A stretch of DNA of 64,000 bases from Trebouxia sp. TZW2008. Taxonomy: Eukaryota; Chlorophyta; Trebouxiophyceae; Trebouxiales; Trebouxiaceae. The stretch lies in contig BDIU01000306.1 of the NCBI GenBank assembly GCA_002118135.1, positions 1 through 64,000 of the forward strand. The letters run 5' to 3'. This document shows, piece by piece, positions 1,380 through 64,000 of the stretch (position 1 is the first letter of the stretch; every line of letters begins with the position of its first letter). The notes beneath the pieces were generated by a model that saw only the letters and a program-made list of their open reading frames with translations, did not search any database and had not been told where the DNA came from. A program made the position numbers and the translations under genes.

Positions 1380-4300
1380 TCACCGCCAACGAAGCGGTGC
1401 AGGGGCAATTTCAGAGGCAGAGCTCGCTGGTTGCTGCGCCTCGTCATCAACAGTGAAGGGAGGAGGGATTTCTGAAGCCACGTACTGAGGCCTCTGGGCT
1501 GCGCTCGAGTTCAAGCGAGACTGGGGCGCTTGAATAGACCCAGCAGCGGACACAAATGAGTCCGGCCTGCTCGTGGCGTCATAGAAAGAGCCCGCTCGGC
1601 TAGATGCCTGCGTCGTGAAGGAACCTCTCCGCTCCGCCGCCGACGTGAATGAGTCCGACGAGTCCTGCAAGCATAGCGTCGTGATGTCAGAATTCTGAAG
1701 CTGGGCCGTCCTCACCGCTCTCAAAGGCAGCCAAATGCTGAAGCAAGCCATAAGCACCAGCCACAAAAGCCTACCTCCTGTTCAAGCTGCCCATATGAGG
1801 GTCCCTGACTGCTCATGGGCACAGCAGTCTCTTCCTCTCCTCCCCTGGTCTGGATGTTCTGCACGCCAGGCAGAGTGCCGGCCTGCTCAGCAGCCCGCTG
1901 CCGCTGTGACACAGTATGCCTACCGCCCGACTGGTGGCCAGGCTCCGCCTGTGCTGTCATACCAGCAGGTGCCTGCAAATATCCGGGAGCAATGGTCTCA
2001 AGTGCGCTGCTGATGCAGATGATACCATGAAGGTACATCTTTGCTGTCAAAACATACTGCAACAAAGACAGCGTTGCGAGCTGACATAAGCCATGATGTA
2101 TGCTCAAAGCCAAGCTACTGCATCGCCATCGGGTGAAAAGCAAGCTGTCCGTGATTTCAGGCACTGGGTTGACTTTCAATTCAACTTTCAAGTGTCTAAT
2201 GACAATATATGTACAGGCAGCGTCTAGCATTTGTGGAACCTGTTGGCACTGACGCTGCAAAGTACCCAACCAGATGACAGTGTAGCGCACCTGCGGACTT
2301 TCAGCTTCCTGGCTGCTAGCCCCGATGGCTCCCTCTGTTGGCGAGCTGGGTGCCTGCACACAAAACTGAACATAAGAAACGTAGAGACCATTTATCATAT
2401 TGTCTGTGTGTGCATCCATTTGGAAATATCTGATCACCAGCCATGTAGATTTCTCGAAATTTGAGTTGTCCGCATGGACTGCAGCAGAGACATGCTTCCC
2501 GAAGAGGATGTGTTGACAGCGTATGAGCAAATCAACTTCTGCATATTTGCAAGCCAGAAGAAACAAAAGAATGCTCAACACACATAATGCCAGTCTTCGG
2601 ACTGCAGGGGAGGCACTTGTTTCCAGAGATCCATGCAGCATAAGTCGGACAGTTACACAGACCAAGACACAACCTGCGCTGCATGTAGTGTCACAGAAAC
2701 TGCTGGGTTGAAAGTAGATGCGGCCTTACCAGCAGATGGCCACCATGGGGCGGTGAGCTGCGAGCAGGGGCCTGCTGGTGGGTCCCCCCCAGCACCCCAG
2801 GAGTTACCCCGGGTGCCACAAGAGGCTGTGCTGTGCCATTCTCAGCACTGCTCAGATCATATCTGCTGGGGTCAAACCCAGAGCTCCGCATGACTGCTGC
2901 CTGCACGATTGCGAACAACATGTGTTGCCTTGAGCTTCAGGCAGACGTCGTGCTCAATCAGTTACCCTCAGTGATACCAAGGGCTGTGCTACACAGTTCT
3001 CAGCACTGCTCAATCAATACCTACTGGGTTGAACCTCAGAGCTCCGCATGACTGCTGCCTGCACCGTTGCAATTAGCATATGTTGCCTTGACTTTCAGGT
3101 AGAACTGATGATGACACAGTCATCCTCAGTGCTACCATGGGCTGTGCTGTGCCATTTACAAGAGCGGCTCAGATCATATCTACTGGGTTGAACCTCAGAG
3201 CTCCGCATGACTGCTGCCTGCACTGTTGCAATTAGCATATGTTGCCTTGACTTTCAGGCAGAACTGATGATGACACAGTGCTGTCAGGAGCTGTGCATGC
3301 CATTCTCAGCACTGCTCAGATCATTTCTGCTGGGGTCAAATCCACAGCTCTGCATGACTGCTGCCTGCACAGTTACAATCAACATGTGTTTCCTTGAGCT
3401 TCAGACTTGATGCTGACACAGTGACCTTCAGTGCTGTCAGGAGCTGTGCATGCCATTCTCAGCACTGCTCAGATCATATCTGCTGGGGTCAAACCCAGAG
3501 CTCTGCATGACTGCTGCCTGCACAATCACAATCAACATGTGTTTCCTTGAGCTTCAGACTTGGTGATGACACAGTGACCTTCAGTGCTGTCAGGAGCTGT
3601 GCATGCCATTCTCAGCGCTGCTCAGATTATATCTGCTGGGGTCAAAGCCAGAGCTCTGCATAATTGCCGCCTGCACATTTGCAGTTAGCTTAGTCTTGCC
3701 TTGAGCTACCAGGGGCTGTGCTGTGCCATTCTCAGCACTGCTCGAGTCAAATGCAGAGTCCCACGTGAGTGCTGCCTGCACATGGTAGTCAATTCAATAC
3801 TGTCAAGGCAGCAGACACACTCAGTCTGTCAACACTCTAGGCATATGCATGGTTCCTGCCTGCACAATTACATGCAGCATTGTTTGCTGTTTGGGATGCC
3901 TTTGGATGCCTTTGGATGCCAGGCATTCCCAAACAGCAAACAATGCTGCATTTTTGTGCAGGCAGGAACCATGCATATGCCTAGAGTGTTGACAGGAATG
4001 CTCAATTGCAATAGCTGCACACTCAACTCCTGAAGCAAAGCATAAGTGACATCAGCAGCAACTGCATTCTCTGAGCAAAACGTTCTTGTTGACTGTGCTG
4101 GGTGATTGCTACATATGCCTCAGCCCGACAATGCAACCACTGTCCTCAGCAACTGCTTGAACCCTAAAGCATGCGACACTGCCCGTGAACAAGCGCATTG
4201 CTGTATAGTCACTGCAATGGTAACAAGTAGCATTGGCTCTTACGACACAAAAGTGGAAGGTGCAGCGTCAGGCAGAACAGTGTCAGGCACAGCAGCATAA

Positions 4301-7300
4301 CCTCAGTGGGTGCACCAGTGAACTGATCTCACGCACTGCGCTTGCTGCTGGACCGGACACTATGCCTGACATTGCCCCTACCACTGTGCCGTACGTCAAA
4401 AGCTGCCACCAGCCTGGTGGACCTGATATGACACTACACAACAGGTTGCCAAAGTCAAATCTTCAGACCGATGACCCCAGCTTTTGAGTCAATAGTAAAC
4501 TATATTTCAGGAAAAAGGCTGACCTGCTGCTGGGGAGGCTGAGGCAGGGCTCCAGCTGCCGCAAGGGCCTGGTCGGGGTAGGGCTGGATGGGGTAGGGCT
4601 GGGCCAAGGGGTTATTGTGCACCCCATTCATCCTGCTATCCAACTGACCTGCTGCAAACACAGCCAGAACAATCAGCCCAATCTTAGAATGCAATATGTT
4701 TGCTTTGTGTAGCGTTTGGGTCAGGGTAGGACTGGGTGGGGTAGGGCTGGGCAGGGAAAGGCTGGGTCAAGGGGTTCTGATGCGCACCACTCATCCTGCT
4801 ATCCAACTGCCCTGCTGTAGCCACAGCCAAAAGACTCAGCCTGTTGATTGCTTAGCCCAGTCGTACAAACCAACATGTTCAACTGCAAGACTTCATCCTG
4901 CTGCCTGACTACCCTGCTGCAATCACAGCCAAAAGCTTAAGGCAAGTGAGCAGTTAGCCCAATCATACAGTCTGACATCTTTATGGCAATTAATGTGCAA
5001 AGCAGTCATCCTGCTATACAACTGCCCTGCTGGAGAATCAGCTACATCAACCACCTCAGCCACACAGTCCAATGTGCTCACTGAATGTGAATCTAGGAAC
5101 AATTGGAGCTTTGATGCAATGCAAAGGCAACAAGACTCAATGAAAGGAGGGCGCTTGATCAGGGTGTTCCAACAGAAAATGCAATCGGCCAACAAGTGAG
5201 CCTTGCAGGCCAGGACAGAATGCAATACCCTTATGGCATAACATGTTGCACATACAATGCAACACATTAATGATATTGGCCTCCAAATGTCCACATATCC
5301 ACTTGAATTCAGCAATTTGCGGAGCTCACACAGCATCGCACCTGTGCCTGAGACTTGAAGCATACTTGTTAGATAGGTAGGCCAGAATGTTGCTGTCAAC
5401 TCACAGGGGGAGCAAAGTCTATGTTGGTCAATGAGGAAGCGATGCCTGACATGTTGCTGTAGACATGACAGGAATGGCCTCCTCTTTGACTGACATAGAC
5501 TATGCTTCTCCTGTGCAATGACAGCAGCATGAAGCGCCATATCAGAGATGGCCTTCTCCATCACCATCCACCCTGATTCTCCTGTTTGTTCACAGGCAGA
5601 TTCCGAATCTTCAGAACATCTCATCCATCCATCCATGCTGTCCTTGGTGGCAAGACAGGCAATAGGTACACCTAGCACTTGGTGACTTTGCATAGAACAG
5701 GTGGTATGACTACTATATTTGTCACCTGGTGGGTAGACAGGCCCGCCAGAAATGGCAGGAACGGCCTCCTCGTTGTCGACGTACCCCATCTCCAGGTCTG
5801 GGTGCAGCATGGGCTCCGGACGCCGCTTGGGAATGGGCAGGCAGCACACCTCCCTCCAATTCCTGAAGATGCCCCTGCAATCAGCAAAGCAGGTCACTAT
5901 TTTGGTAACAATGAAGTAAACTGCTGACATGAGACTTGTAATCACCCAGGCCCAGCATGGCTCCAGCTGCTGCTTGGAAACGGACAGGCAGCACGCCTCC
6001 CTCCAGGTCTTGAAGGTGCCCTTGCAGGCAGCAAAGCAGCTCAAGTGCCTTGTGACAGTTCAATCTACTAGGCTGCTGACATGAGACGTGTGATGACCCT
6101 TCGGCCAGCATGGGCCCCGGCTGCCGCTTGGGTTGGACAGGCAGCAGACCTCCTTGCAGTTCCTGAAGATGCCACTGCAATGAAGAAGCGTCAAAACATA
6201 AGGCTTGCAATGACATCGTAGATGCATCATGCTTGAGTCCTTCTGCCGACTGGGGCAGGCAGCACACCTCCCTCCAATTTGAGAAGATGCCCCTGCAACC
6301 AGCGAAGAAAGTTACCCTGTAACAATTGGGTATTCTGCTGAGATACGCTTGCCATAGCCCTGCACATACACACCTGTCTGAAGATGCCCCTGCACCTAGC
6401 AAAACGGATTAGCCTTGCAGGGATTGACTGAACCTCTGATAGCATGACTGTCCGTTTAGCTGCAGTGACAGTGCAGCAGATGTACCCAGTGATATGAGAC
6501 GGTTGGCAATTGTCGCAGTCTTAGGTCTTTCAGTGCCCCATGACCTTGTGACAGGACTGATGGAAGGACATGAAAACTTGCCCATGAACAGACTGCAAAG
6601 CAGTAATGCTGCTCAAGAGGAGCTGCGCCTTGCAGGCTGCACAGCCGAGTTGAGTATGACTCTACTGCTAGATTTGACCCCACTACTTAGGCACACAGCT
6701 AGTGCATGTCACACATTGCTGCACTCAGCATCATAATTGCTTCTGTACATGGTCTGCATGCTGTGCTTGCTGCATATACAAGCCAAAATGCCACTGTTTT
6801 GTTACAGTCAGGAGACATAGGTAAAGGATTGCCAGGCAAAAGACATCAGCAGTTTCTGACCTGTTGTATGGGTTGCCCTGGGCATTGCCATATCTGTGCC
6901 TAAAGTGCTCATAAGTGGTCTGGTTCGTAGAGGTCAGGAAGATATGGAAGCCGCTCAAACCACCCACAAAACTACATGCACAATCAACATCAGTCAGACA
7001 TTGACTTTGTCATCATCATGACTCACAGCACAATTGCATGCACAGGCAGCATCAGTCAGACATTGCCGTTGTCATCATTGTCACCATTAACGTCACATTG
7101 TCATCATCACTGTCAGCATCATTGTCAGCACTGTTGTCAGCATCATCCTGAATCATCACTGTCAGCATCATTGTCTAAATAATTGGCGTATGATCACTGA
7201 CATGCTTGCTAGTGAGGCTCCACATCCCAGCCAGCTGCATACAGAAACAGTGAATTGCCTTCAAACAAGTTTGTCAGACATGCTAGGCAGCATCTTCTAA

Positions 7301-10300: not shown

Positions 10301-12865
10301 GTGCAGAAGATGGTGAGGCACAGCAGGGTGCAACTGAAGATGAAGGCCAGGAAAAAGCGATAGTTCCTCTGCAAGTCAAACAGGCAGTCAGATGGGCCGC
10401 CCATTGTGACATCAACAGCAACGCACAGCTGGCAATGAAGATTGGTTCATCCACACGGGTGCAGAAGATGGTGAGCCACAGTAGAGTACAGCTAATGATG
10501 AACGCCATGAAGAAACAGCGGTTCCGCTGCAGCACAAACAAGATGTCGTTCTGTTGACTCCTGTGCATACAGGACTCAATGCAAGCAGACAAGGATCTGT
10601 GTGCGGCACAAGATGGATAGCAGATAGGCGCTGCACTCTGTCATCATTAGCAGTTATACGAATGCAGATGTATGTAAGATGAAGGCCAGAAAGAACCTGT
10701 AGTTCCTTGCGCAACACAGTAAGGCAATCAGATGGGCTATCCAAGTTGACATCAACAGTAGAGGACAGCTACGACGACAACGAAGCCTGGGTCATTGAGG
10801 CAGGTGCAGAAGATGGTGAGACACAGGAAAGTAAAGTTGAAGATGAGCGCGAGGGGAAACAGTAGCTCCTCTGCAGCACAAACAGGTTGTCATTCTGTGC
10901 AAGCAGGATGCAATGCTTTAGGCCCTGCACTCTGTCATCACCAGCACGAGCGCAGATGCATAACAGCCTGTTTGTGTTTTAGAGGGACTACACGCTCTTC
11001 CTCGCTAGAGCTGAAAATGAAGGCCAGGCAACGTGACAGGTTCTTCCTGGCCTTCATCTTCAGCTGTAGGAAGCTAGAGCCTGTAGTTTCTCTGCAACAC
11101 AAACAGACTGTCATACCGTACACCCTCAAATTGATCGTGCACCCCAAAATTTTGGATGATTTTAGGGCTTCGCGCACCGCTTTTGCGCAGGGTCTTGAGG
11201 GTTTTGGGAGCACCGCGCATTTGGCAAAATATGTCCAAAATTGGCCGGAAATCGTGAAATTTAAGCGTTTTGAGCACGTTTGAGCCAAAACAACTACTAA
11301 GTCGCTTGGCGCAGGGCACTTCGCATAGGGGCAAAATAATTACCCGAGCTGATAGCGCAGGGCAGATTTAATGCTTTGTGCGCGATCAATTTAAGGACGT
11401 ACGATACATGTGCACTTGATGAATAACAGTTGTGAATATCTGGACATGATAGTGCATGGACATCAGCTGGCTCATGCAAGTGCTGAAGACGGTGAGGCAC
11501 AGCAGTGTACAGCTGAAGAGGAAGTCCAGGAAGAAGCAGTTGTGCCTCTGCCGCATAAACGGGATATCTTTGTGCGTTTCTGTGCCAGCAAGATTCAACG
11601 CAGCATAGCATCAACAGCAGAAGAGAAGGAACAGTCTGTAGGTCCGCTGCAGCACAGAAAGTTGTCAAACAGGCCCTGCACTCTGTCACCAACAGCTCTT
11701 GGGGTTCCCTATTGTACTTATGTCATGATCAGCGTTCCATCACAACACAACAGTATGTACTTAGCTGGGCCTGCTGAGCCTGCCTAGCATACGTTTAGAA
11801 TGAATGAAATGAACGAATGACACAACAACAAAACAAACGATATGATGAAGAGCAGCAGCTTACCAGGCCGACGCATGTGCCCACCCAGGGACAGTGGTGG
11901 TCAAACTTCTCCACACAATTGTCACACACGGCGCAGTGGGAGCAGCGGGGCGGCCTCCAGTGGTTGCATGTGGTGCACCACTTGGTCTGAATGACGAAGC
12001 CGTTGATCTGATGTTCCTTGAAGGCAGGCCTTGATCTGCACAGCAATGTACTTTGTGGGCACTTACAAGTTGAGTGTTTACAGGCATGCGTTGGGCACGC
12101 TGCACATAGGCATGCTGCTCATGGATCAAGCGACATGCAGAAGCATTGTCCATATGATGATGCACTGTCGTCAGCTACAACAGCAGATGTTGTGAGAGAA
12201 TTGAGACTGATACAATAGAAAATTGTGCAAAAGATGCGGTGGAAGAACGTGCTTGCATGGGTCAGGAACTGCAGAGTGCATGACGGTCGAAACGTTCTGA
12301 GCAGGAGTCACAAAAGGATTGCATGCTCATAGGCACAGAACAAGCTGCATGCTAAGCCACATTTGCATGCATGCTCATGATGACTGTCACTGCATGCATA
12401 AGGCAATCTCAAGCAGGCAGCAACTCACGCTCTTGCCTCAGGCCTGTTGGCATCATCTCTGGGGTAAAACCCAGGGTCTCGCAGGGCTGTCATACACAGG
12501 CAGAACACAGAGGCAACAAGCTCTGCTGCCACAATCGCTACCAAAGCCCATGTGATGTTTGAGCCGGCCTTTGGTGCCACAAAGCCAAAGAAGATGCCGC
12601 ATGGCGCAAGGACAATGAAGATTGTGCCAAGCAAACTTTTCCAGTCAGTGCCTGCAGGAACAAAGAGCTTACTGAGCTTATTGCCTGTGTTCAGTGACCA
12701 CTTCTCCGGAGCCAAGCATCGACAGCGCGAGCGCATCAGCGACTTACCTACGACAAATGCGCCATTGAACCAGGCGAAATGCTCTCCGGCGTTTTCCCCT
12801 CGACGGCGTTTGATGCTGTTGGTCTGGTTCAGATCGGCCGTCTGGTCGGGCATTCCGGTGCCCAA
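1380..12865 (-). CDS. DHHC-type protein S-acyltransferase (palmitoyltransferase), 11 exons
   Basis: Transfers palmitate to cysteines of target proteins at endomembranes. Exons: 12865-12748, 12651-12429, 12035-11864, 10368-10187, 6971-6861, 5874-5726, 4651-4524, 2900-2730, 2353-2291, 1972-1775, 1664-1380; all phases close (1800 nt, 599 aa). Exon 2 carries two membrane helices and the RDPGFYPR motif. Exon 3 is the Cys-rich domain with [18 protein letters not shown] (catalytic DHHC). Exon 4 starts RNYRFFLAF (third helix). Exon 5 has the TTxE-type motif [10 protein letters not shown] and NPYN. Exon 6 is a basic/Pro tail. Exons 7-11 are a low-complexity Pro/Gln/Ser tail, all joined in phase 0. Reading on past exon 7 gives an earlier stop at 4500 (368 aa), so a shorter isoform is possible, and the five-exon tail is less certain than the core. 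The introns (up to 3.2 kb) are packed with decayed copies of exons 4, 6, 7 and 8. Confidence 0.88.
2901..3790 (-). repeat. Tandem decayed copies of palmitoyltransferase exon 8
   Basis: About six copies at a period near 150-159 bp lie directly 5' (higher coordinate) of the functional exon 2730-2900. Each repeats the acceptor region and exon start: on the + strand the landmark GCATGACTGCTGCCTGCAC recurs near 2889, 3048, 3206, 3356 and 3506, with weaker forms near 3660 and 3765. Reading frames are broken by substitutions and small indels. Confidence 0.85.
3826..3995. repeat. Near-perfect long inverted repeat (hairpin)
   Basis: Left arm 3826-3900 and right arm 3922-3995 are almost exactly reverse complementary, with about 75 bp arms and only a few mismatches or indels. 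The 21-nt loop consists of repeats of TTTGGATGCC. The arms contain a CCTGCCTGCACAATTACATG stretch resembling the adjoining exon-8 copies, so the hairpin probably arose by inverted duplication of one such copy. It lies inside an intron of the palmitoyltransferase gene, on the transcribed path. A transcript would fold into a pre-miRNA or siRNA-precursor-like stem. Confidence 0.9.
4652..5100 (-). repeat. Decayed copies of palmitoyltransferase exon 7 region
   Basis: Two degraded copies of the segment spanning the start of exon 7 and its acceptor follow the functional exon (4524-4651). One is near 4728-4860 (GGGTAGGGCTGGGC then CATCCTGCTATCCAACTGCC). The other is near 4886-5040 (CATCCTGCTGCCTGACTACC, then CATCCTGCTATACAACTGCC). 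They are non-coding by eye. Confidence 0.7.
5875..6420 (-). repeat. Decayed copies of palmitoyltransferase exon 6 start
   Basis: The functional exon 6 begins at 5874. Four further copies of its acceptor and first coding part lie upstream in the intron, near 5950-6040, 6110-6180, 6240-6305 and 6365-6405. All share a block close to TTCTGAAGATGCCCCTGCA (the reverse of the TGCAG acceptor and the GIF.NWRE codons). Translated on the minus strand they give variants such as [12 protein letters not shown] and [13 protein letters not shown]. The frames differ, so they look like echoes, not alternative exons. Confidence 0.8.
7015..7185 (+). repeat. Low-complexity CATCA/TTGTCA repeat
   Basis: Irregular tandem repeat of CATCATTGTCAGCA-like units inside the 3.2 kb intron between exons 5 and 4 of the palmitoyltransferase. 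A longer duplicated block (CAGCATCAGTCAGACATTG) precedes it. No coding potential is seen. Confidence 0.7.
7340..9540. repeat. Long-period tandem array, about seven diverged units
   Basis: A unit of roughly 260-400 bp is repeated about seven times. The landmark GCATGGTC..TTGAGATCT followed by CCTGTACATGAGCA recurs near 7347, 7729, 7993, 8371, 8670, 9041 and 9438. A second landmark, AAGCAGCAGCTGCTGA..AAG.CAGGCAGG, recurs between them. The array fills most of the large palmitoyltransferase intron. No open frame is conserved between units and no protein family was recognised. It may descend from an exon no longer recognisable, or be intron satellite. Confidence 0.75.
9690..10100 (-). repeat. Two decayed copies of palmitoyltransferase exon 4 (3' side)
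   Basis: Copies near 9690-9840 and 9942-10090 repeat the 3' part of exon 4 (functional copy 10187-10368). Minus-strand translation gives recognisable [20 protein letters not shown] and [10 protein letters not shown], and both keep a donor-like sequence after the TGCTG. Both lose similarity towards the 5' end of the exon, so they lack the RNYRFF start. Confidence 0.85.
11009..11065. repeat. Inverted repeat made of exon 4 fragments
   Basis: AGCTGAAAATGAAGGCCAGG at 11009-11028 is matched in reverse by CCTGGCCTTCATCTTCAGCT at 11046-11065 (one mismatch, 17-nt loop). The sequence is the part of exon 4 coding for LAFIFS, present once in each orientation. Confidence 0.85.
11117..11403. mobile_element. 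MITE-like element with terminal inverted repeats
   Basis: Left end 11117-11140 (CGTACACCCTCAAATTGATC..) and right end 11380-11403 match as imperfect 24-bp terminal inverted repeats (about 19 of 24 positions). The flanking ATAC at 11113-11116 and 11404-11407 fits a 4-bp target-site duplication. The 240-bp interior has a composition unlike its surroundings (AAAATTTTGG, GAAATTTAAG, CGCGCATTTGG) and no open frame. It sits among the exon 4 copies and contains none of their sequence, so it inserted later or independently. Superfamily not assigned. Confidence 0.7.
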
Positions 12866-18563: not shown

Positions 18564-21500
18564 ATGTCTGTCAGCAAAACACCGGCCGATGCCAATGTTT
18601 CGCAACTGACAGCATCTGCAGAAGAGATCGGAATACTCGAGGTGGCTATGCAGTTCTGTCTCATGCAAGGTCTCAGGTTGCCACCGACTGTTGGTACACC
18701 TGAGTTGACATTGGCTGGTTGCTGTGGACTAGGACGTGGCTGGCAAGGCATCGCCTGCCAGCAAAGCAGGCGCTTTACCTCCCAATCTCGCCGCAGAAAA
18801 CAGCTATGGCCCAGATGACATGACTTGTGCCATATGCTTGGAACAGATTCAGCTAGAAAACACCGCATATGTAGTGGGCTGTGAGCACGTGTACTGCGGT
18901 GAGTCAAGATTTTTGTCCCTGCACATCACATGCTGCATTCCAGCAACTGCGCAAGCTTGCTTACAATTTGCAATGTCTGCAATGTGTTTCTCAAAGACCT
19001 GCTTATGGTTCTGACTGCTTGTTAACCAAAATGTACAAGACAATACCTTCTCCTTCTCAAGCTTCACGCTCTTGTTTGATAGTGACTTGCGTCGTGTACC
19101 TTTGCAGCCAAGTGTATCCTGCAATGGGCTGATCTGCGCGAGAACTGCACTTGCCCTCAGTGCAAAAAGCCATTCAGTCGCTTGCTGACTTACCGCATGC
19201 TTGACGGCTCCATGAGTGATTTTCCCGTGGAGGAAAGCATTTGCCTGCTGAAGAGGGCAACCTGGGTGCAAGAACAGATGAAGGTTAGCTGCAACAGAGC
19301 TAACCACAAGGGCCCTACATTTTGCATGATGGTTTTGAACAAGCTTGCGGAAGTGGTCTTTGATCCTGTCTTACCCATCACAATGTGTCATTTGATACAA
19401 TCTGTACTTTGGCAAGTGTCCTGTGTCATGTCAGGCTGCTGGAACCGCACCACCTGATGCTGTTGTTTAGGTGCATACAGACTGCTGAAGAAAGGAAAAG
19501 CTGTGGCTGCGTATGACTCATACCATGCTGCAGCAGCTTATGACATGGATTTAGGAAAAGACTGGCAGGACTACAGCAGCTTGATAGATGATTATGGTGA
19601 TGATGAAGAGGCCTAACTTTTTTTGTGCGAGTGCATGCAGACTGCTGAGAAAGGGAAAGCTGTGGCTGCGTCTGACTCATACCACGCTGCAGCAGCCTAT
19701 GACATGGATCCTGTGACAGACTGGCAGGACTACAGCAACTTCTATGATGAGTACGATGATGATGAAGAGGTAAGCACACAGAACATGAGGTCATTCTTGT
19801 TGCAAGGACACTGCAATTGGGTGCTGCTCAATGCACTTTAACTGCAGTGGTACCTCTGATCAAGGATCATCTTCTTGGTGACCAGAGCAGTCGCTATAAG
19901 ACTGTACTTGCAATACTGTATTTATGCATCCAATCTGCCTTCTGCAATATCCAGTTTCCTGGCTGGAGGTCCTGTGGCAACACTTTTGAATCTGCTTAGA
20001 TGCGGCTTGTCTTGTACTCTTGCTTGGCATAGGGATCCCCTCCCCCCTGTGGGGGCGGGGGGAGGGTTTGTGCACATATGCATTGTCATGTTGCTGAGTG
20101 ACGCCAGGCGCAGCCAAACCTGTTGCAGCTGATGTTGTGCATGTGGCTGAGTGACTACAGTTTAGTTGGACAACCTCTTCTTCAGTTCAGCTGCTGGTTG
20201 CGCTCGCATCAAGGTTGTTTTTGACACTGTCTGTATGAACCCCTGTTGGGTTCTTAACCCAGTCATTGAGATCCAATCATTGAAGCAATCAGTTATAATC
20301 ATGTAATGTTGCAGGTGGAGGACTTCTACTTCAGCTCAGCTGCTGGGCGTGCTCGCATTGTGCTGGGCAACAGGCGCTGGGGCGAGAACGGCTATGTGGC
20401 CAGTGGACGTCAGCAAGGCCGCCCTGTACAGCACAACAAAAACAAGGTGAGCGTTCCTCCAGCACAACAAAACCCGCAAGAGGAGCTGTCTGACGCTCAA
20501 ACATCCTGCTTTGTATCATGAGCATACGTGACAGCAGGGCCGTACTGTGTACGACACCGAGAAGAAGATGAGGTCTGCAGCCATTGTTCTTTCACCAAAA
20601 TGCTTGCTGGGCAGGAACTTAGCTATTAGGTATGTACAGGGCTGCAGGTCCTGTGTAGGTCCTGTAATGCCTTGCATCAAGCCTGTCAACACTGCTGCAG
20701 CCCAGGCAGCAAATGGTCCTGCATGTGTTTATGCATGGCGATTTCAAAATAGTCGTGCACTGAAGAAAAGAATGCTTGCCCAATTTTAGGAGATCAGGGC
20801 AAGCCTGGGGTGACCCGTCACAGGTCTTCCGCAAACTGTACCAAGCCAATGTGAGATTGAATCCAGCCATAAATCAAGAAAGATTTGTTGCATAGGCTTG
20901 CTGCACATCAGCTGAGCCCGTATGTTACATCATTTGCCAATGCAGCGACATCAAGAAGGTCATTAGGCATGAAAGGCTCAGCAGGAAAGCAGTCCGCGGC
21001 AAACAGCATGCTCTTGCAACGCGGTAGCTGCATGCAATCATTTTCAGTCCTGACAAAAATGCTTTTCCATGAATTCCATGTATTTATAGGGTGGTCAAGG
21101 AGGGTCATCAGGCAAAAAGGGCTCAGCAGGAAAACAGTCAGCAGCAAACAAGCAGCAGGCAAGCACGCCAGGCCCCAAGACACCTGCCAGGAGCACACCT
21201 CAGACATCACCCGCAGGTGACCTTCCTTACAAGAGCATCATACCTGCTGTGTGTCTCAAGTTGGGTGAAACTTGGGTGAAAAACCTTTGAGACACTCTCC
21301 TGAGGTGTGAGGAGCTCACTTGTGATTCGCCTACTTGTCACTACCAATTTTGAGGAACGTACACAAGCACAAGCCCCTGCAGAAATGTAGGTGTAAGGGT
21401 GAGCTATCTTGCCCTGGCATCAGTTGTTTGTTGTCCCCGATGCTTATTTCAAGTTTCAGAACGTCTCCTTTGCTTTTGGTGAAGCTGTTGCTGTCCCATT

Positions 21501-23108: not shown

Positions 23109-23121
23109 CTCTGTTTTAACA

Positions 23122-23240
23122 CACAGTGGGCTGCCAAGAAGGCTGGTGCTCAGGCAGATTTCATGCTTGTTGACTTTGCTTTGGACACAGCGGGATGCCA
23201 AGAAGGCTATTGCTGATGCGGCTGCAGATGTGGTGTGTAT
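23122..23240 (+). repeat. Two decayed copies of the last RING-gene exon end, past the stop
   Basis: GCCAAGAAGGCT..GCTGATGC..GCAGA, which encodes the final NAKKAAADAKAD, recurs at about 23128-23160 and 23195-23232, downstream of the stop codon at 23106-23108. The copies would lie in the 3' UTR. Confidence 0.75.
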
Positions 23241-26219: not shown

Positions 26220-26470
26220 CAGGCCTTCAGGAAGCTCAATATACCGACACGCGAAAAGTCTTGGCGCAGCGAAATGGACGATTTCCTGCCTAACAAAGCA
26301 AAATGCATGCGTGAAGCTGTGTCTCCGAATCAAGCAGCTGAGTCAGTCAATGCAATTACAGCAATACTACGGGGTCATTTGTAAGGAGGGTCAAAACACA
26401 CAGCAAAAGCAGAGATGAAGACAGGATCACCAACAACACTGAAAACGCTGAAACAGCACAAGCAGAAGTA

Positions 26471-48800: not shown

Positions 48801-49612
48801 ATGAGACACAGTTGAACATGATAGCCAGCATCATGTGCTGTTCACAGGCCATTCACTGCTGCTGCATGCACCTACTAGGGTGGTAGACCTCATCAGCAAC
48901 CATGTCAATGATGATGCCGACGACAACTATCCTTTTGATGTAGGCACACACCATTTCTCATGTTGTTCTGTCAAAATTGAGGTCAAGCTTACTGTTGGCG
49001 GCAGCTCCTTTGGAAGAGCAGTAAGTTGTCCTTGCCGGAACATTCTGCATTCAATTGTGCAGCACTTGCATCAGCTTAGTCGTGAGTGGTTTTACAAACA
49101 CATTCTGCATTCAATTGTGCAGCACTTGCATCAGCTTAGTTGTGAGTGGTTTTACAAACACTTTGATGCCCAAGTGATCATGTCAAAAACTGTGACTTGC
49201 TGTGCTGCTAAGTTTGCAAAGCCTTGAACTGCCTTCATCAGTAATGTGATAGCTTATAGATTGCGGCAGTAGCATCAAACTGTAAGTTTCTGCCTGCAAT
49301 GTATGCTATGACAGGTGTTTGAAGCATTACTATGCTGCATTCCAGACAGCATATGCAGCCAAACACTAACAGACGACACAGTGTGTTTACACGCAGGTTG
49401 AGACTCCTTTGAGCATGCAATGCAATGTCTGCAAAAAAGAGCGTGCCGTGACTCTCCATGATGCAGCTCGGTACTTTGGCTCTTTCTGTCAGGCAGGAGG
49501 TTCTGTGAAATGCGGTTTCGATTCTCACGGACAGCCTTGCGCAGGCGTAATGTGGGTTCATCACACATGGCCCTTTTGGCTCTTTTTCCACAACATTCTG
49601 CATGTAATATAG
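45863..49612 (+). CDS. Protein built from repeated phase-1 exons, C-terminal Cys cluster, 443 aa
   Basis: Exons 45863-45964, 46032-46138, 46450-46649, 46940-47023, 47231-47320, 47456-47536, 47656-47724, 48079-48131, 48294-48399, 48630-48680, 48848-49020, 49397-49612; phases close (1332 nt). The N-terminus (MDPMLVQNTPYSSGEVALL) leads into a basic helical region (HQRLRGRTQDAVLAKVRAMR). The middle is hydrophilic and made of related short exons ending PMLDNTSG, PVLDPNSG, VVNNALG, PMIDNTSG, NQLSG and VENTG. The C-terminus has MQCNVCKKERAVTL, then VKCGF and QPCAG: a CxxC plus two cysteines, loosely like a CW-type zinc finger but lacking its tryptophans. Nuclear role is a guess. The 48294 exon needs a GC donor. 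The weakest parts are the exons between 47724 and 48680. Confidence 0.6.
49041..49160. repeat. 60-bp tandem duplication, one mismatch
   Basis: Bases 49041-49100 are repeated at 49101-49160 with a single C/T difference (49081 versus 49141). It lies in the last intron of the repeated-exon gene and is clearly recent. Confidence 0.97.
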
Positions 49613-53102: not shown

Positions 53103-56100
53103 ATGGTCGCTCACCGGATCGTCGTAGCTCTGGCTGCTGCGTTGTGGTTCTTGCAAACAAGCGTAGCCGGACGCCAGCTGCATCAACTTGCGCCCACCGA
53201 CACGTTGCAGTGCGACATCGCCGTTGTTGGAGGTGGTCCAGGTATGCTCTCTACAGCAGACTCATGCCTTAGGCTTGTGTACTGATCAAAACATCAGCAA
53301 ATAATGTCTGCGCGCACGCTGCGAGGGCCACCCGCTTGGAACACCGCACTTGTGTTGACCCCCCATTCAAACGTTTCTGCAAGTCGCAACTTCAAGCACG
53401 TCACTGCTTTTCCGCCACAGGCGTGTAGCTGCACACAGTGTACCTGCTTCACAGCACTTTCAAGCTTATGCGCCGTTGATAATGACTTGCATCGCATATA
53501 CGCGTGAGCTATTCTGCGCAGCTGACGCTTTATGCTTATGCAGGTGGCGTTTATTCCTCATACCGCCTGCTAGAAGCCAATGTCTCGTCCAACGTATGCC
53601 TGTTCGAGACCAACAACAGGGTTGGCGGCAGGTACACCAATTTGAAACACCTGAGTATCTTGCTCTTGGAGTTGAAATCTACAGACCACAGCACGCTCAG
53701 GCATCTACAAGGTTCTTGTTAACAAAGCAAACGTTTGCAGAGTGATTTAAACACATTGATTGCCTGCAATGCTGTATCTCCTCAGTCTGCACAAGCAGCG
53801 GTATGCAACGTGCCAAGTATTGCCAATGAAATCAGCATACTGCATGTGCTGCCCAATATGATGTAGCGATGTCATACACTACGGTGATGACAGTCAGCAA
53901 ATTTGTTGTAACAATTAAATAACAATGCAGGGTGTACAGCTTGCGCAATTTGGGCCCCAATCAAGACCTGACATTGGACATGGGTGCTTACCGCTACATG
54001 CCTTTGGCTCAGCCGCTCATCACTGACATCATCCAAAACCTGCTGCAATTGCCAAACAGGCTGTACCAGGTGACACCCACAGCATTGCAGCAGCAGCTGT
54101 TACCTGCTTGCTCAGCTGTAGCCTTACTCTGACTGCAGCTGTTTGCGCTCATTGATTGCATAATGCATTGCTGCACAGCGAAACACGATAGCAGCTAAGC
54201 ACTGCATGCACAATGTTGCTCTGAGTGTGTGCATTCATCAGTCACCTCGAGCATTTGAGTGCAAACAAACACAGTGTGCTGCCAACCTGTGCTGCATAGC
54301 TTGCCTGTTGAGGCTCATGTGCCTGACGTGCTGTGTCTAAGATTGAAAAGGTGAATAGGCACTTCATCTTGCTTTAGCACATATGCATTACAATGTGCGC
54401 ACCCGGCATCTGCGTATGCAACTTTGCCCGCAATGCCAGCTGCATTGCAGTTTGTGCCTTGCACTGTGCCCTTGTACTGCGTGATTTTTACTGTGTGCCT
54501 GTACTGACTTGAGATATTTGGATGCACTGCAGCCCGGCATTGCCGACTACAGAGTGGTCTTGACACCAGAGGGTGACAATGCCGGCTTTGCTACATATGT
54601 GGAGAAGCTGTTTGCCATGGCTGAGGACATGGGCCTCAAGGCTTCATTCTCAACCCACATTGACACTGTAGACCAGGATGGAGATGGCTTCCTGCTGACT
54701 ACATCTTCAAACACGGTATGCTTTTATCGGCATCTGCATTGCTGGTTGGTGTGACAAAGTATCATGCAAATGAGCCTGAATGCATTGCCTGTGTCTAAAT
54801 GTATGTCTGTCTGTCTGTCTGTCTGTCTACAAATCTCATGGCCAAGACCTGTTTAGCTTTTGGTATGGAGCCTGCTTGATTGCTTGCCCATGATCAACTT
54901 AGATGCTTCCGGGCGATGCTGCTGTACGTGTGCACGTGGACAGCCAGATGTTGCATGCCATTGTGACTCGCCGCCTGATTATGCAAGGCAAGCCTGACTG
55001 ACCCAGGCCAATCTTACTTGCTGTCTGATCATCAAAGGCAAGCCTGGCTAACCGGCTTGTGTCACCATACAAAGCATCCGGGCCAATCAAGTCAATCTGA
55101 ACCTGGCAACTCGGCCTCTGCATGGGCTGTTGAACAACAGCAACCTGCCTGCACATGTGTACATCCATGTCATCTTGGCATCTGATCATGCATGGCCAGC
55201 CTAACTGGCGGATCTGTGCTGATGTACAGAGCATCCGGGCCAACCAGGTCATTCTGAACCTGGCAACTCGCCCTCTCCACAGACTGCTGGACAACAGCAA
55301 CCTGCCCAATGCTGCCGCCTTCAGTGACCAGCTAGTGGCACCCTACATCAACCGCGCCACCAAGCTGTACCTGTACTACCCACATGCCTGGTGGCTGCAA
55401 GTGGGCCTCAACAACGGTTCCCTGCAGTATGTTGACACCACGTGGCCACCAGTTGATGCCCCTATCATTGGCAGGTCAGTGCTGCAGTGAGATGTTCACA
55501 TTAGCTACACCAGCAAGCTGTACCTGCACTACCCACATGCCTGGTGGCTGCAAGTGGGCTGTACTGTAAATAATACAGTACAGCTGTACCTGTACTATCA
55601 CATGCATGGTGGCTGCAAGTAGGCCTCAACAATGGGTCTCTGTAGCATGTTGACACTCAGTGGCCACAAGTCGATGCCCCCATTTTTGGCAGGTCAGTGC
55701 TGCCCCTTGTATCGTTTGCATGCATTTTTATGTTTGCTGTGTGCGGGTACAAGGCATAGCGGTGGCTATAGGTTGCTTTGTCCCTTGTGAGGAATGCACT
55801 TGATGATTCTTATAGACTGCTGCAGTTTGCTGACCAGCAGTGGTCACTGCTTGATGCGCTCACCACTGCACTTGTGCACATCTCCATCCTAGGCTGTGCT
55901 GTAAGTTTATCAAGAATTGTGTGACTTTGATGTTCAATTTTCAATGTCACAAAACGCTTTTGCAATGAGCAGGTACCATGATGCTCAGGCTAAGTGCCCC
56001 CAGGCCAATGCACATGGCGGTTTGGACGTCTACTATGGCATGTATGCAACTCATGATGTTGACAGTGATGCTTTTATGTACAGGTACCATGATGCTCAGG

Positions 56101-58366
56101 CTAAGTGCCCTCAGGCCAATGGCAATGGCGTTTTGGACTTCTATTACAACAGTACCACACCCCTGGACACCAGCAGCTGCTATGGCTTCTTCCAGGCTAC
56201 CTACACCTCAGATGCCGGCATGACTAATATCAGTCACCTGCCGCTTGACTACCTGGTTGACTATGCTGGAAACATGGACACGGTGAGTCAACCATGTGAT
56301 GCTAACCATGAAGTGCATGGGTTCATTTTCAGCAGATCAACACATGTGCGTTGCATGAGAACTGCTTGCTTGACGATGGAGAGCATAATCCCTGGAACTT
56401 TGAATGTACTGCCGCAACAAGGTAATGCCTTGCGCTGCAGTTCAGCATGCATGACTGTTGCGCTCTGCACAAGGCTAGGCAAGGCAAAGCAATACACTTC
56501 AATTGACATCAACCTCCTCTTTCCAGTATGAGCTGCCTTTGAAATAGCTTCTCCTGAAAGACTTGCAGCTGCATTTCTTGCTGTGAGCTGTGTTACCCAT
56601 TGTTTAGTTCCAGTAATACCTTCCATTCAGACTGTGTCTTGGCAATGCTGCAGACTGTGCCATACTCGAAATGAGACAACACAACCGTGAAGGGTGAGAG
56701 ACTACTAGCTGATGCACACAGTCGCCTCATGGCGCATCTCACTTTCTGGGATGTGCTGCTTGTTGCTCCAGTCACGTTCAGCAACAATCATCTGTCTTGA
56801 AATGCTGCAGACTGTGCCATACTCAATGTGGGACAACACAACCGTGAAGGGCGAGAGACTACTAGCTGACGCACACGCCCGCCTCATGGCTTACCATGCC
56901 AACAAGAGCATCCTCCTGCCAGCAGGCACTGCCAGCAACCTGCCCACTCAGGCCATCGTTGCTTTCTGGGATAGTGCTATCACATGGGTTGGTGGTGGCT
57001 GGAGCAGCATGAAGGTGTGTAACCTCACATCAGTGATTTTGTCAGCTGACAGCAGTCCTTGCATGTCACTTTACAGCTGTGATTGTGTGCATCTTGGCAC
57101 AACTGATCTGCCATAGCATGCCAGCAACCTGCCCACTTAGGCCATTGTGGCTTCTTGGGGTTCTGCCATCGCTTGGGTTGGATGGAGCAGCATGAAGGTG
57201 ACTGTCTGACCTAATGCTTGCTTTGTGATGAGCGCCACACCAAAGCATGCAGATGAGACGCAGCAAGCTGACAGTCAGATTGTTTCAGCTATCCGTAGCA
57301 GATACATGATGTGTTTTATGTCAGGCCCATCAGCTTGCCACTTTCTGCTGATCAGCCCTTCGCAGCTGCACATACGGCTGCAATCTGCAGCTGTACACCG
57401 CACGGATGTGACATCCCAAGAACGTCAAGATACATGACTGTGCTTGTGCTGAAGCAAAGCTTGCTGTGCGCTTGGTCAGTGCAACGCAGCTTTGGCTAAG
57501 CGCAAGCATATTTCTGCGTACACATGACCTTGATAGTTGTTGTGGAGTATACTTGTGTGCTAGCCAATGCATGCAGACAATGCAAATGCAAGCACTGATG
57601 TGATGCAGGATGTTGACCGTGGAACAGCAATGAATGTGTCCCAGGCAACCAAGCCTTACGCAGACCTGAACCTGTTTGTGGCCAATGAGGCTTACTCCAC
57701 TCAGCAGGTACTTCAACCGTCATGACATGACCAGCATATACCCTTGTTCTCTTGCCGTGCACCTCTCTCACAGCCTGCAAGCCTGTGCACATGGTGCCTT
57801 GCTGGGTGTGTGCATGTATTGCTGTCAGCAGAAACACAGTGTGCTGACACATATCTTGGTCTGCTGGCATCCCTAATGATTTCCAGTGAACAATGACTCA
57901 CCATCACAGGTACAAGTCATTTTGCGCAGCACGTTACAGCCATGCTGCACTGGACCATGCTATGTACGTTTCCGCTGTCAGACCAAGCATCTCATAGCTG
58001 GGCTGGTGCACCTGATATGTTTGCATGCGCTTGATGGCATGCATTATTTCAACAATGCACCGACTGTATGACTGACTGTTCTGTGACTGTGGAGTGATGG
58101 CATGGACTGACCAGATGACTGTCTTATAGGGCTGGTCTGAGGGTTCGCTGACCATGTCAGAGAACTACCTTCAGAGGTACTTCAATGTGGGCATCCCCAG
58201 CTGGATGCGCAGCACCACCTGGCCTCAGATCAACATGCTAGTCCCCACTTTCAACGACTACGAAGAGGCCCCTCAAGGCATCACCATTCAACCTGTCACT
58301 GCTGCCAATGCCACAGCAATCACCACACAGCCTGACACAAACGGCACTGCTGCTACCAGTGGCTGA
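53103..58366 (+). CDS. Secreted FAD-dependent amine oxidase-like protein, about 10 exons, 521 aa
   Basis: Exons 53103-53241, 53544-53631, 53931-54069, 54533-54715, 54903-54935 (tentative), 55230-55474, 56084-56282, 56811-57014, 57609-57707, 58130-58366; phases close. A signal peptide (IVVALAAALWFLQTSVAG) precedes the Rossmann FAD site split over exons 1-2 (CDIAVVGGGPGGVYSSYRLL, then LFETNNRVGGR). DLTLDMGAYRYMP in exon 3 matches the GA.R..P segment of flavin monoamine oxidases. VILNLATRPLHRLL follows, and GWSEGSLTMSENYL near the C-terminus is the FAD/substrate loop region. The C-terminus is Thr/Asn-rich. An extra open exon (56333-56421, with CALHENCLLDDGEHNPWNFE) fits the upstream phase but not the next exon; it may be alternative or need a micro-exon. 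Confidence 0.82.
54804..54829. repeat. (GTCT)n microsatellite
   Basis: About six GTCT units in an intron of the amine oxidase-like gene. Confidence 0.9.
55010..55160 (+). repeat. Decayed 5' copy of amine oxidase exon 55230-55474
   Basis: AGCATCCGGGCCAATCAAGT at 55073 and CGGCCTCTGCATGGGCTGTT repeat the first 80 nt of the real exon (AGCATCCGGGCCAACCAGGT at 55230), about 157 bp upstream. Adjacent intron sequence (GGCAAGCCTGGCTAACCGG / GGCCAGCCTAACTGGCGG) is duplicated with it. Confidence 0.9.
55500..55695 (+). repeat. Two decayed 3' copies of amine oxidase exon 55230-55474
   Basis: CAAGCTGTACCTGCACTACC..CATGCCTGGTGGCTGCAAGT at 55513-55558 and CAGCTGTACCTGTACTATCA on to TTTTTGGCAG then GTCAGTG at 55580-55692 repeat the end of the exon. 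The second keeps the complete exon end and donor. Confidence 0.9.
55974..56045 (+). repeat. 5' copy of amine oxidase exon 56084-56282, frame still open
   Basis: GTACCATGATGCTCAGGCTA..GTGCCCCCAGGCCAATGCAC translates as RYHDAQAKCPQANAHGGLDV, against RYHDAQAKCPQANGNGVLDF in the real exon 110 bp downstream. It keeps a GCAG acceptor. It is the best-preserved echo in the window. Confidence 0.9.
56638..56745 (+). repeat. Decayed 5' copy of amine oxidase exon 56811-57014
   Basis: CTGCAGACTGTGCCATACTC..GAGAGACTACTAGCTGATGC..CGCCTCATGGC repeats the acceptor and first 80 nt of the real exon, about 160 bp upstream. The copy has TGAGAC in place of TGGGAC, a stop in frame. Confidence 0.9.
57117..57200 (+). 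repeat. Decayed 3' copy of amine oxidase exon 56811-57014
   Basis: CATGCCAGCAACCTGCCCAC..TAGGCCATTGTGGCTTC and GGTTGGATGGAGCAGCATGA then AGGTGACTG repeat the last 80 nt of the exon and its donor. An in-frame TAG replaces CAG. Confidence 0.9.
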
Positions 58367-59233
58367 TTTCACTGTTGCTGGAGTCACTGGTCACTAGTGG
58401 CGACTGACTGGTTACTCATGGCGAGTAACTGATGACTAGCGGCTGGTGACTCATGGCTCTGGTCACTGTAGTCAGATGACATACCAAAGAGGATGAGCTG
58501 TTCAGCTCTACATGACTCACCCTGGCAGTAGACTACCATACAGTACTGGAAGATGTTGTATTGAAGCCTTGCAACATGGCATGGAAGTGTATTGGGCTGC
58601 AGTGTTTACTGAAATAAGAAGAATTGTACAAGAAGCGATGAAGACAAGAACAGTCAGACTGAGTTTGTTGTATGTATCATGCCACATGTATATCTGTTTG
58701 CTGACTTCTTGAAGTTTGTCTGCCGCAGCAGTTCCCTGTTGTGATCAGACTGAGTTATCATGAATGAGGCTTGAGCAACAGTGTAGAATTGCTTTGACGG
58801 CCAAGTGCACACACAATGTTGAGTCTTTGTTATGTGCCTGTCACACTGTGTATCAAGTGGCTGAACGCAATTGTCTTCTTCACACTGGGGAAAGCATGTA
58901 AAATTGGATGACCCTTACTAGTGCTAATCATACAGCAGTTACTGTGCAGTGCAAATTGCATTGAATGCTGCTGCATCAGGACCCTTTGTTTGTTCCTTTG
59001 GAAGCATGATACAGTTGTGCTGTCGCATCTCGAGCTTGATATCTGTCTATTCGAAAGCATAAAACAGTTGCAGACGTACACCAGACAACTGATGAGCAAG
59101 CATTGATTTTAGCATGCAAACGCCACCAAAGCTTTCCCTGCTTAAGCTGGAAATGTTTACGAGGCATACACATCAGTGTCTGCACCCAGGAAGCCGTCAC
59201 GACACAGGCTGAAAGTGTTGACTAACATGCATG
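58367..59233. other. Convergent intergenic region, no gene seen
   Basis: 58375-58470 holds an irregular repeat of GGTCACTAGTGGCGACTGAC / GGTTACTCATGGCGAGTAAC-like units directly after the amine oxidase stop. The remainder has only short unsupported frames. Confidence 0.6.
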
Positions 59234-62200: not shown

Positions 62201-64000
62201 TACGCCGGTTGCCTCCTGCCCATATGTTGGTGATGTCATAGACAAAGGCAGCCTCCCTGCATATAAGCAAATAATCACTTAGCAAGTTTCACTTTGTTTC
62301 AGCGAGGAAAAGATGCATCTCACAGGAGTCTTGCTGCATCTGCTCTGGCATTTTGCTGCGCATGAGAGCTGTGTGCGAGGCCTCAGTTGCCTCCTGCCCA
62401 TATGCTGGAAAACAAAGGCAGCCGCCCTGCATGTCACCTTTCTTTCACGCATGCATCATGAAGCAGTCAACATGCAGGCATGGACCGATCAAAGAGAAGG
62501 CATCAATAAGTCATGCATTACTCACCAACCAGTCATCAATCAGTTGCCAGCCAGCCAGCAGTCAGTGATCAATCAATTGTGAGTACTCAGTGAGTAATGA
62601 AGCAGTCATCAGTCATGCAAAGCTACACTGCAATTGTCCTGCCTGGCATGTGCAACAAGGAGCGCGCCACAAGGCAGTACTAGATCACCGATTCTCGTGC
62701 AGTAATTGCTCCCAGATGCTTTCTTGGTAATCAAAGTCGTCTTCATGAACAGAAATGATTGCAGTACCTGGGGAGATGGCTTGCACAGCAGCAGAGACGG
62801 CATTGGAGCCTTGCTGAGCCACAGTGACATGAAACAGACAACACCACACATTGAGACACAGTCTACTAAAGACAAACACATATTGTGAAGTGGCAGTAGC
62901 CGCTGTCAGAATCAAACAATCACCTGGGGAGATGGCTTGCACAGCAGCAGAGACTGCATTGGAGACCTGCTGAGCCACCGAGCTGGCAGCTGTTGTGATG
63001 CGCCGGGATGCCTCCGGGCTCATGCACTCCTCTATCTCTTCTTCCTCAGCAGACCCATCAAATCTGCGTCAACAGGTTGCTTGAGTGTTGTTTCAGGATG
63101 TATTGTGGATGGAGTCACAGCCTATACTGGTACTGTGGTGATGCAGCGGGACGCCTCTTGGCTCATGCACTCCTCTACCTCTTCCTGCACATACAACACG
63201 CCAGGCCTGCATTGACAGGGGTTTCATCATCATGAGCATCATGACTTAGCCTTTGCCTGCCATTTGTCATGCTTCCTTGCTGACGGATTCACAGCTCATG
63301 CTGCGGTAATGGTCTTGTCTCAAGCTTGCAACTGTCATTTGCTGCTCATATGAGACAGCATTTTTAGATTATGTGAAGAAGTGCTGAAGCCAGCCAATCA
63401 ATCAGGGACATCTGAGCGCACACATGCAGGAGAGGCAGTCCACACCTTGGCCAGCAGCATCCCTGGTCTTCAGTGTACGCCCCAGGGCGCCTGGAACCTG
63501 GTCGGGCTGAGCTGAACAGAGGCTGCTCACCCCTAGGGGATGATGCGTTGGTGTATCTGTTGTGCAGTCCTCTGTCTGATGCCTCAGCCTTGACTGTGCC
63601 TGCTACAAAATCCAGAATGAAGTTCAGACAACTTGGAGTTCGCCTTGCTGTGTTGAAATGAAACAAGAGAGCATTGAATCGTTCAACGGGCATGCTATCG
63701 GCAATTACAATAACAGACTTATGAGAAATTGCAAGGAAATGTAGTGTCAGGAAAGTGTGTGCAGTCAGCTGTCATGACAAGCAGCCTCTTAGTCCCAAAA
63801 GCAGCACTGCAATTTTTGCGGTGTCCCACAATAGTTGGCATCATATGATCAATGCGCAATGCATGACCAAGTGATACGGACCTGACACAGGCACTGAGAG
63901 TCTGTCAGCAGCAGCAGCAGCAGCAGCTGCAGCAGAACTCTGTTCCTCTTCGTCTCCCATAGCAGCCAGCTTCTGTTGACTCATGCTGGTCAGATTTTCC
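59234..64000 (-). CDS. Gln/His/Pro-rich protein of unknown function, 3' part of gene
   Basis: Firm exons: 63063-62924, 62102-61905 and the terminal exon 60339-59234; phases join (ISPG into GRLPLSM, QQGF into ERECSSP). Open segments near 63650-63520 and 64000-63894 (MSQQKLAAMGDEEEQSSAAA, polyalanine) are probably earlier exons; their junctions are unresolved. Order: acidic Ser region (AEEEEIEECMSPEASRRITT), a helical segment (TALMRSRLLQQMQQDSCE), a long Gln/His tract with repeated SQQHGMQHQQQ, a Pro/Gly/Trp-rich stretch (SSPQGPWGQGASNVPWP), an Ala/Thr-rich linker, and a conserved-looking C-terminus (AVGIAACLPKLDKQLSQRSS, RAVAKLWGVNLKRYTGRKS). It resembles a transcriptional or RNA-regulatory protein in composition only. 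No family assigned. The 5' end lies outside the window. Confidence 0.6.
60515..61175 (-). repeat. Five decayed 5' copies of the terminal exon start (Gln/His-rich gene)
   Basis: The acceptor and start of the terminal exon (original 60285-60339) recur upstream. TTTGTCTGCTGCTGGTGACTGC..GAGAGGGGCTGCTGCACTCA..TCTGCA appears near 60530, 60667, 60877, 61013 and, partly, 61147. Each keeps the TGCAGA acceptor-like end except the last. Confidence 0.9.
62155..62440 (-). repeat. Two decayed copies of exon 62102-61905
   Basis: TTGCCTCCTGCCCATATG..TG..GACAAAGGCAGCCTCCCT and CACAGGACTCCTGCTGCATG recur at about 62160-62270 and 62318-62440. The nearer copy keeps a TATGCAG acceptor, while the presumed functional exon has TGTGAAG at the same place. 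Confidence 0.85.
62740..62815 (-). repeat. Decayed 3' copy of exon 63063-62924
   Basis: ACCTGGGGAGATGGCTTGCA..CAGCAGCAGAGACGGCATTGG repeats the exon end and donor found at 62922-62990. Minus-strand translation still gives SNAVSAAVQAISPG. Confidence 0.9.
63125..63200 (-). repeat. Decayed 5' copy of exon 63063-62924
   Basis: CGGGACGCCTCTTGGCTCAT..GCACTCCTCTACCTCTTCC repeats the exon start (minus-strand EEVEECMSQEASR against EEIEECMSPEASR), about 140 bp upstream of the real exon. Confidence 0.9.

What the first reader, a model, noticed from the sequence alone, without database searches (positions are those of the whole stretch)
1380..64000. Exon echoes: functional exons flanked by decayed partial copies of themselves
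Seen in the palmitoyltransferase, RING, DUF2358-like, FBA, U-box, amine oxidase, Gln/His-rich and repeated-exon genes. The geometry is consistent. Copies on the 5' side usually carry acceptor plus exon start; copies on the 3' side carry exon end plus donor. This is what repeated tandem duplication with one breakpoint in the exon and one in the intron would leave: the full exon survives once and each event adds a splice-site-bearing fragment to the intron. It could be an intron-growth mechanism typical of this lineage, and the retained splice sites could act as decoys or recursive sites. I know of no description of this as a genome-wide process. Sequence identities were not computed.
Basis: partly seen in the sequence, partly recalled or inferred. 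Interest (0 to 1): 0.88.

Follow-up and report, generated by a model that had tools for sequence, protein, structure and literature searches.

The report
Decaying exon fragments fill algal introns
In this green-algal genome, probably that of a Trebouxia lichen partner, about half of the predicted protein-coding exons examined share sequence with a partial copy lying close by, most likely left by repeated short tandem duplications that would lengthen introns while one intact exon is kept.

Summary
The echoes are real. In the window plus 27 other stretches of the same genome (328 kb), local same-strand self-similarity is pervasive: 211 families, none between unrelated loci. 51 of 98 predicted exon cores lie in a local direct pair, against 25% of length-matched non-exon segments. 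The geometry holds: 27 of 32 copies with an exon start lie 5' of the exon, 12 of 13 with an exon end lie 3'. Exon-echo mismatch rates at codon positions 1, 2 and 3 are 11.7%, 11.9% and 24.9%, as expected of a constrained exon beside a neutrally decaying echo. About half of the pairs keep homology in the rest of the tandem unit (20 of 38; 37 of 73). Offsets are mostly 82-225 bp, with a sharp fall above 225; 168 of 172 units match no other sampled locus. So tandem duplication is supported. Not supported: exon specificity (noncoding pairs have similar offsets) and decoy function (echo splice sites decay about neutrally). Some listed genes show no echo or were not located. Lineage-wide occurrence and the repair pathway are untested.

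The parts
55230..55474 (+). amine oxidase exon 4 (functional copy)
55068..55149 (+). 5' echo of exon 4, offset 157, 87% identity, includes the acceptor region (AG now AA)
   Evidence: intron part of the unit also homologous
55498..55559 (+). 3' echo of the interior of exon 4, offset 153
55599..55703 (+). 3' echo of exon 4: exon end plus donor, offset 218, 86% identity, in-frame stop
56084..56282 (+). amine oxidase exon 5 (functional copy)
55965..56035 (+). 5' echo of exon 5, offset 111, 87% identity
56811..57014 (+). amine oxidase exon 6 (functional copy)
56644..56733 (+). 5' echo of exon 6: acceptor plus exon start, offset 157, 90% identity, in-frame TGA
   Evidence: intron part homologous
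57119..57200 (+). 3' echo of exon 6: exon end plus donor, offset 183-189, in-frame stop
19635..19769 (+). coding core of the exon following the RING exons
19471..19611 (+). 5' echo of that exon, offset about 160, 86% identity
20164..20209 (+). 5' echo of the predicted exon core 20312-20497, offset 149, 80% identity
4729..4839 (-). 5' copy of predicted coding core 4524-4685
2825..3707 (-). array of 5.7 copies of a 153-bp unit containing exon-like frames
5805..6180 (-). array of 2.5 copies of a 147-bp unit overlapping predicted core 5721-5840
62766..62978 (-). 57-bp block repeated at offset 156 (95% identity) with an unrelated 99-bp spacer; exception to the simple unit model

Best explanation
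The echoes are most likely remnants of short tandem duplications, mostly of about 80-225 bp, each with one breakpoint in an exon and one in the adjacent intron, after which selection would keep the one complete exon while the extra fragment decays neutrally. Shown: copies on the same strand and close by; 5' copies carry the acceptor and exon start and 3' copies the exon end and donor; the rest of the unit is still recognisable in about half of the cases; divergence by codon position is about 1:1:2; nearly all units match no other sampled locus. Inferred: exon echoes are over-represented mainly because exon against echo ages on one side only at codon positions 1 and 2, while intron against intron ages on both. 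Inferred and untested: the lesion is a staggered break, or two nicks on opposite strands up to about one nucleosome repeat apart, followed by fill-in and end-joining, which would set the upper size limit near 225 bp; each event lengthens the intron by one unit.
For: Direct-only, local pairs. Positions 27/32 and 12/13. Intron part of the unit above the 95th percentile of the null in 20/38; outer part of the unit in 37/73 gapped simple pairs, with 4 further pairs showing the full unit. Codon-position mismatch rates 0.117, 0.119, 0.249; ratio 2.11, bootstrap 1.78-2.52, 27 pairs. Three abutting copies of a 132-bp unit across a citrate synthase acceptor, where only the last copy matches the conserved protein. 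168/172 units without a match in other sampled loci. Similar offset hump in noncoding pairs and a sharp fall above 225 bp after correction for detection. Tandem duplications from staggered ends are known in other organisms (PMC5730883 and PMC8355091, passages).
Against: A few little-diverged blocks lack the rest of the unit: window 62766/62922 (95%), L005 2836/3022 (94%), L004 2404/2594 (90%); 13 of 73 gapped pairs rank at or below the null median. A first test of spacers found little (6 of 47 above the 97.5th percentile). Exon over-representation (51/98 against 25%) is larger than the roughly 1.5-fold that slower decay alone predicts. Some of the 51 are repetitive coding arrays, and some cores are false calls (reversed sequence gave 20 against 96 at score 16 or more). 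High-identity pairs are few (20 of 116 banded simple pairs at 90% or more), so present activity is not shown. The repair route and the nucleosome link have no direct evidence.
Confidence: 0.8

Rival explanations
1. Spaced block copying: blocks of 30-180 bp are copied to a site 100-200 bp away by template switching or templated end-joining, so that the spacer was never duplicated.
For: Sharp block edges and unrelated spacers; at identity of 0.86 or more, none of the 32 pairs examined is a full-length ungapped unit; the 95% pair 62766/62922.
Against: Residual unit homology in 20/38 and 37/73; the abutting 132-bp citrate synthase copies; indels split the ungapped blocks.
Confidence: 0.12
2. The echoes are working alternative exons (mutually exclusive exon duplicates) kept by selection.
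For: Only 8 of 27 5' echoes carry a stop or frameshift over their short length; the thioredoxin echo in L003 differs mostly at third positions (9 of 10).
Against: Positions 1 and 2 diverge as fast as expected of a neutral copy (ratio 2.11); most are partial exons without a second splice site; 26 of 57 pairs have frameshifting indels.
Confidence: 0.05
3. The repeats are dispersed mobile elements such as introners, or simple satellites.
For: Many families are multi-copy (93 of 211) and some are plain arrays.
Against: 168 of 172 units have no match in other sampled loci; the copied part is the host exon itself.
Confidence: 0.02
4. Assembly or haplotype errors created the copies.
For: None found.
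Against: The copies are typically 10-30% diverged with indels, and the pattern occurs in all 28 sequences.
Confidence: 0.01

Closest known systems
[quoted passage not shown] ATP2A1; potato RdRp; PMC4974935, abstract and passages)
   Same: Local tandem duplication supplies splice sites; in the potato case the duplicated unit also spans an intron-exon border.
   Different: Those cases create a new intron in single genes; here existing introns lengthen around a kept exon, at many exons of one genome.
Small tandem duplications from staggered breaks or paired nicks, by fill-in and end-joining (PMC5730883 and PMC8355091, passages)
   Same: Direct, abutting, local duplications without a mobile element.
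   Different: PMC8355091 speaks of short (<100 bp) insertions in human; the units here are mostly 82-225 bp. The pathway was not tested here.
Internal gene and exon duplication (Gao and Lynch; named in PMC4974935, otherwise recalled)
   Same: Exon sequence duplicated in tandem within a gene.
   Different: Here the copies are mostly partial and decay neutrally.
Introners (PMC9860276, search listing and start of abstract)
   Same: Lineage-scale remodelling of introns.
   Different: Introners are dispersed elements that create introns; these units are locus-specific copies of the host exon.

Membership tests
Local tandem duplication | copies in direct orientation, close together | tested here: met
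   81 direct pairs within 2 kb against 1 inverted
Local tandem duplication | whole unit duplicated, copies abut | tested here: inconclusive
   unit homology in 20/38 and 37/73, absent in the rest; abutting at citrate synthase
Rogers-type intron gain (AGGT duplication) | duplicated exonic segment with AGGT becomes a new intron | tested here: not met
   in the two genes examined, units span an existing intron-exon border and no new intron is formed; other genes not examined
Introner or other dispersed element | similar copies at many unlinked loci | tested here: not met
   168 of 172 units without a match in other loci of the 328-kb sample
Mutually exclusive exon duplicates | both copies under coding constraint | tested here: not met
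   codon-position rates 0.117, 0.119, 0.249 over 27 pairs; single pairs may differ
Staggered-break fill-in duplication | dependence on end-joining and fill-in; little microhomology at junctions | not testable with these tools
   no mutants or young junction set; microhomology was not analysed

The most novel reading that the evidence does not exclude
A nucleosome-length tandem-duplication process has run across the whole Trebouxia genome and built a large share of its intron DNA, leaving at about half of all exons fossil acceptor- and donor-bearing fragments whose 1:1:2 codon decay dates each intron-growth event.
Probability: 0.4. Interest if true: 0.8.

Novelty: new variant of a known kind. 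Interest (0 to 1): 0.62.

Why it matters
How introns get longer is often put down to transposons or left open (general knowledge). Here the source of each added piece can be read from its neighbour, with a built-in neutral clock: exon beside echo. If it holds in related algae it would give a datable record of intron growth, a natural test of how splicing tolerates a second acceptor or donor 100-200 bp away, and a view of a duplication process with a size limit near one nucleosome repeat.

Tried and rejected
Blastn self-comparison suggested a hard lower limit near 97 bp for offsets of simple pairs. The 60-bp duplication at 49040 was missing from the blastn list, so I suspected an artefact and replaced it with an exhaustive ungapped diagonal scan. 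The limit softened: 19 of 118 simple offsets fall below 82 bp, and corrected density there is about half that at 120-225 bp. The fall above 225 bp stayed sharp. The 150-160 bp peak of the window alone is broader in the genome sample.

Unique spacers first looked like proof against tandem duplication. Tests with strand and splice site known or a free junction showed unit homology in about half of the pairs, so I returned to tandem duplication and kept spaced copying as a rival.

The codon-position test without a known frame gave a weak signal (57 pairs, p 0.002); with the exon frame it became clear.

Pfam on 30 hand-picked ORFs under pairs: 6 pass the curated cut-off (zf-C2HC_2, 5_3_exonuc_N, ILV_EDD_C, Citrate_synt, Thioredoxin, Sulfotransfer_3), 9 have only weaker matches (among them WD40, gamma-glutamyltranspeptidase, ABC2_membrane, AAA_16) and 15 have none. 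The choice was not unbiased; ORFs were taken from the listing.

No other eukaryotic genome was available as a control. Ten paper searches listed no account of exon echoes as a genome-wide process; most titles were seen only as listings, and the library is open-access only.
Full report
WHAT WAS ASKED. The window is contig C290 of a 68.5-Mb assembly in 527 contigs. A protein modelled from the window is 81% identical over its full length to a protein of Trebouxia sp. C0004 and 68% to one of Trebouxia sp. C0010, so the genome is most likely that of a Trebouxia, a green alga of lichens. Size and base composition (68.5 Mb; 46-53% GC in 2-kb steps) fit strain A48 (69.1 Mb, 49.68% GC; PMC12712428, passages).

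IS IT THERE. Blastn self-comparison of the window gave 76 matches, 67 direct and 9 inverted, 70 of them within 1 kb. In the window plus 27 stretches from other parts of the genome (328,163 bases) blastn found 156 families; of its 86 simple pairs 81 were direct within 2 kb, 4 direct farther apart and 1 inverted, self-palindromes left out. About 20% of bases lay in direct pairs less than 2 kb apart. Because blastn can drop matches near the main diagonal, I scanned every diagonal from 15 to 1000 bp without gaps: 820 direct segments, against none between 25 pairs of unrelated loci at a quarter of the offsets. They form 118 simple and 93 multi-copy families. All 28 sequences have at least one segment at offset 60 or more.

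ARE EXONS INVOLVED. Of 30 hand-picked ORFs under pairs, 6 pass Pfam cut-offs, among them a 5'-3' exonuclease, a thioredoxin and a citrate synthase domain; 9 have weaker matches and 15 none. A codon model trained on such exons and on the amine oxidase exons called 98 exon cores at score 15 or more; 51 overlap a direct pair at offset 60-1000 by at least 25 bp, against 25.4% of length-matched non-exon segments. Reversed sequence gave 20 calls at score 16 or more against 96 in the real sequence, so some cores are false, and some of the 51 are repetitive coding arrays. Predicted splice sites give a coherent consensus, CAG|GT and TGCAG|G.

GEOMETRY. Of 77 acceptors and 58 donors tested, 32 and 13 have a copy. 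Of copies that include an exon start, 27 of 32 lie upstream; of copies that include an exon end, 12 of 13 lie downstream. One of the five exceptions, window 55972, is an echo mistaken for the exon: the curated exon is 56084-56282. This geometry follows if a tandem duplication straddles an exon edge and the one complete exon is kept.

DECAY. For 27 exon-5' echo pairs the mismatch rates at codon positions 1, 2 and 3 are 0.117, 0.119 and 0.249; position 3 over the mean of 1 and 2 is 2.11, bootstrap 1.78-2.52. A constrained exon changes mainly at third positions and a neutral echo changes everywhere, which predicts 1:1:2. Echo acceptors keep AG in 21 of 27, close to the 0.78 I expect from a per-base divergence of 0.12; donors keep GT in 7 of 11; 8 of 27 5' echoes carry a stop or frameshift over their short length. 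Nothing here suggests that echo splice sites are kept or purged. On these rates exon pairs should stay visible about 1.5 times as long as intron pairs (my arithmetic); the observed excess at exons is about twofold, so some of it is unexplained.

IS THE WHOLE UNIT DUPLICATED. The visible blocks are usually shorter than the offset, and a first test of spacers against outer flanks found little (6 of 47 above the 97.5th percentile). With strand and splice site known, the predicted intron part of the unit scores above the 95th percentile of the null in 20 of 38 pairs; with the junction free to move, the outer part does so in 37 of 73 gapped simple pairs. In 13 of the 73 it is at or below the median. 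A few of those without homology are little diverged: window 62766/62922 (95%), L005 2836/3022 (94%), L004 2404/2594 (90%). The simple model does not explain them. The clearest case is the citrate synthase gene in L023: three copies of a 132-bp unit span an acceptor; the last is the true exon and matches solved citrate synthases, while the echo just before it reads GVLREGAD for GPLHGGAN. A second exon of that gene has a 5' echo at offset 151.

SIZE. 90 of 118 simple offsets lie between 82 and 225 bp, 20 below and 8 above by the bins (the lowest bin, 15-25 bp, cannot be corrected). Corrected for detection, density is highest at 120-225 bp, about half that at 25-120 bp, and falls sharply above 225 bp. 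Noncoding pairs look similar: 32 of 47 at 90-220 bp against 36 of 46 coding pairs; 25 intermediate pairs were left out. So exon structure does not set the scale. A limit near one nucleosome repeat is suggestive; no chromatin data were available. High-identity simple pairs are few (20 at 90% or more), so present activity is not shown; collapse of young copies in assembly is possible.

AMINE OXIDASE GENE. Eight exons join in one frame; exons 4, 5 and 6 have echoes. One offset per side (157 + 218 + 111 + 157 + about 186) sums to roughly 830 bp of the 3,429 bp in the seven introns, about a quarter; this is my arithmetic.

WHAT IT IS NOT. 168 of 172 units have no match in other loci of the sample, so they are not dispersed elements. 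They are not, as a rule, alternative exons (codon rates above), nor assembly errors, given divergence and indels.

WHAT REMAINS OPEN. Whether relatives share the process, which repair route makes the duplications, whether any echo is spliced, and why some high-identity blocks lack the rest of the unit. Ten queries of an open-access paper library listed no account of exon echoes as a genome-wide process; the closest found is intron gain by tandem duplication in single genes (PMC4974935, passages).

Noticed in passing
window 62766-62822 and 62922-62978: A 57-bp block repeated at 95% identity with an unrelated 99-bp spacer and no homology outside it; does not fit the simple tandem-unit model.
   Followed up: partly
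L003 2827-3134: Thioredoxin exon and its upstream copy differ almost only at third codon positions (9 of 10): a candidate for a working duplicate exon.
   Followed up: no
L023 5045-5412: Three in-frame, stop-free copies of a 132-bp unit at a citrate synthase acceptor; use of the upstream acceptors would insert multiples of 44 codons.
   Followed up: partly
5' echo acceptors, 27 pairs: Of 6 echoes that lost the AG, 4 read AA, the last G changed to A; too few to test.
   Followed up: no
window 3826-3995 and 10960-11114: Near-perfect palindromes (inverted self-matches, 88% and 78%).
   Followed up: no
window 49040-49161: Young abutting duplication of a 60-bp unit, 98% matches; a possible model of a fresh event.
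   Followed up: no
window 42071-43171: Nested repeats of 6, 12, 18, 85 and about 122 bp with Asn/Asp-rich open frames.
   Followed up: no
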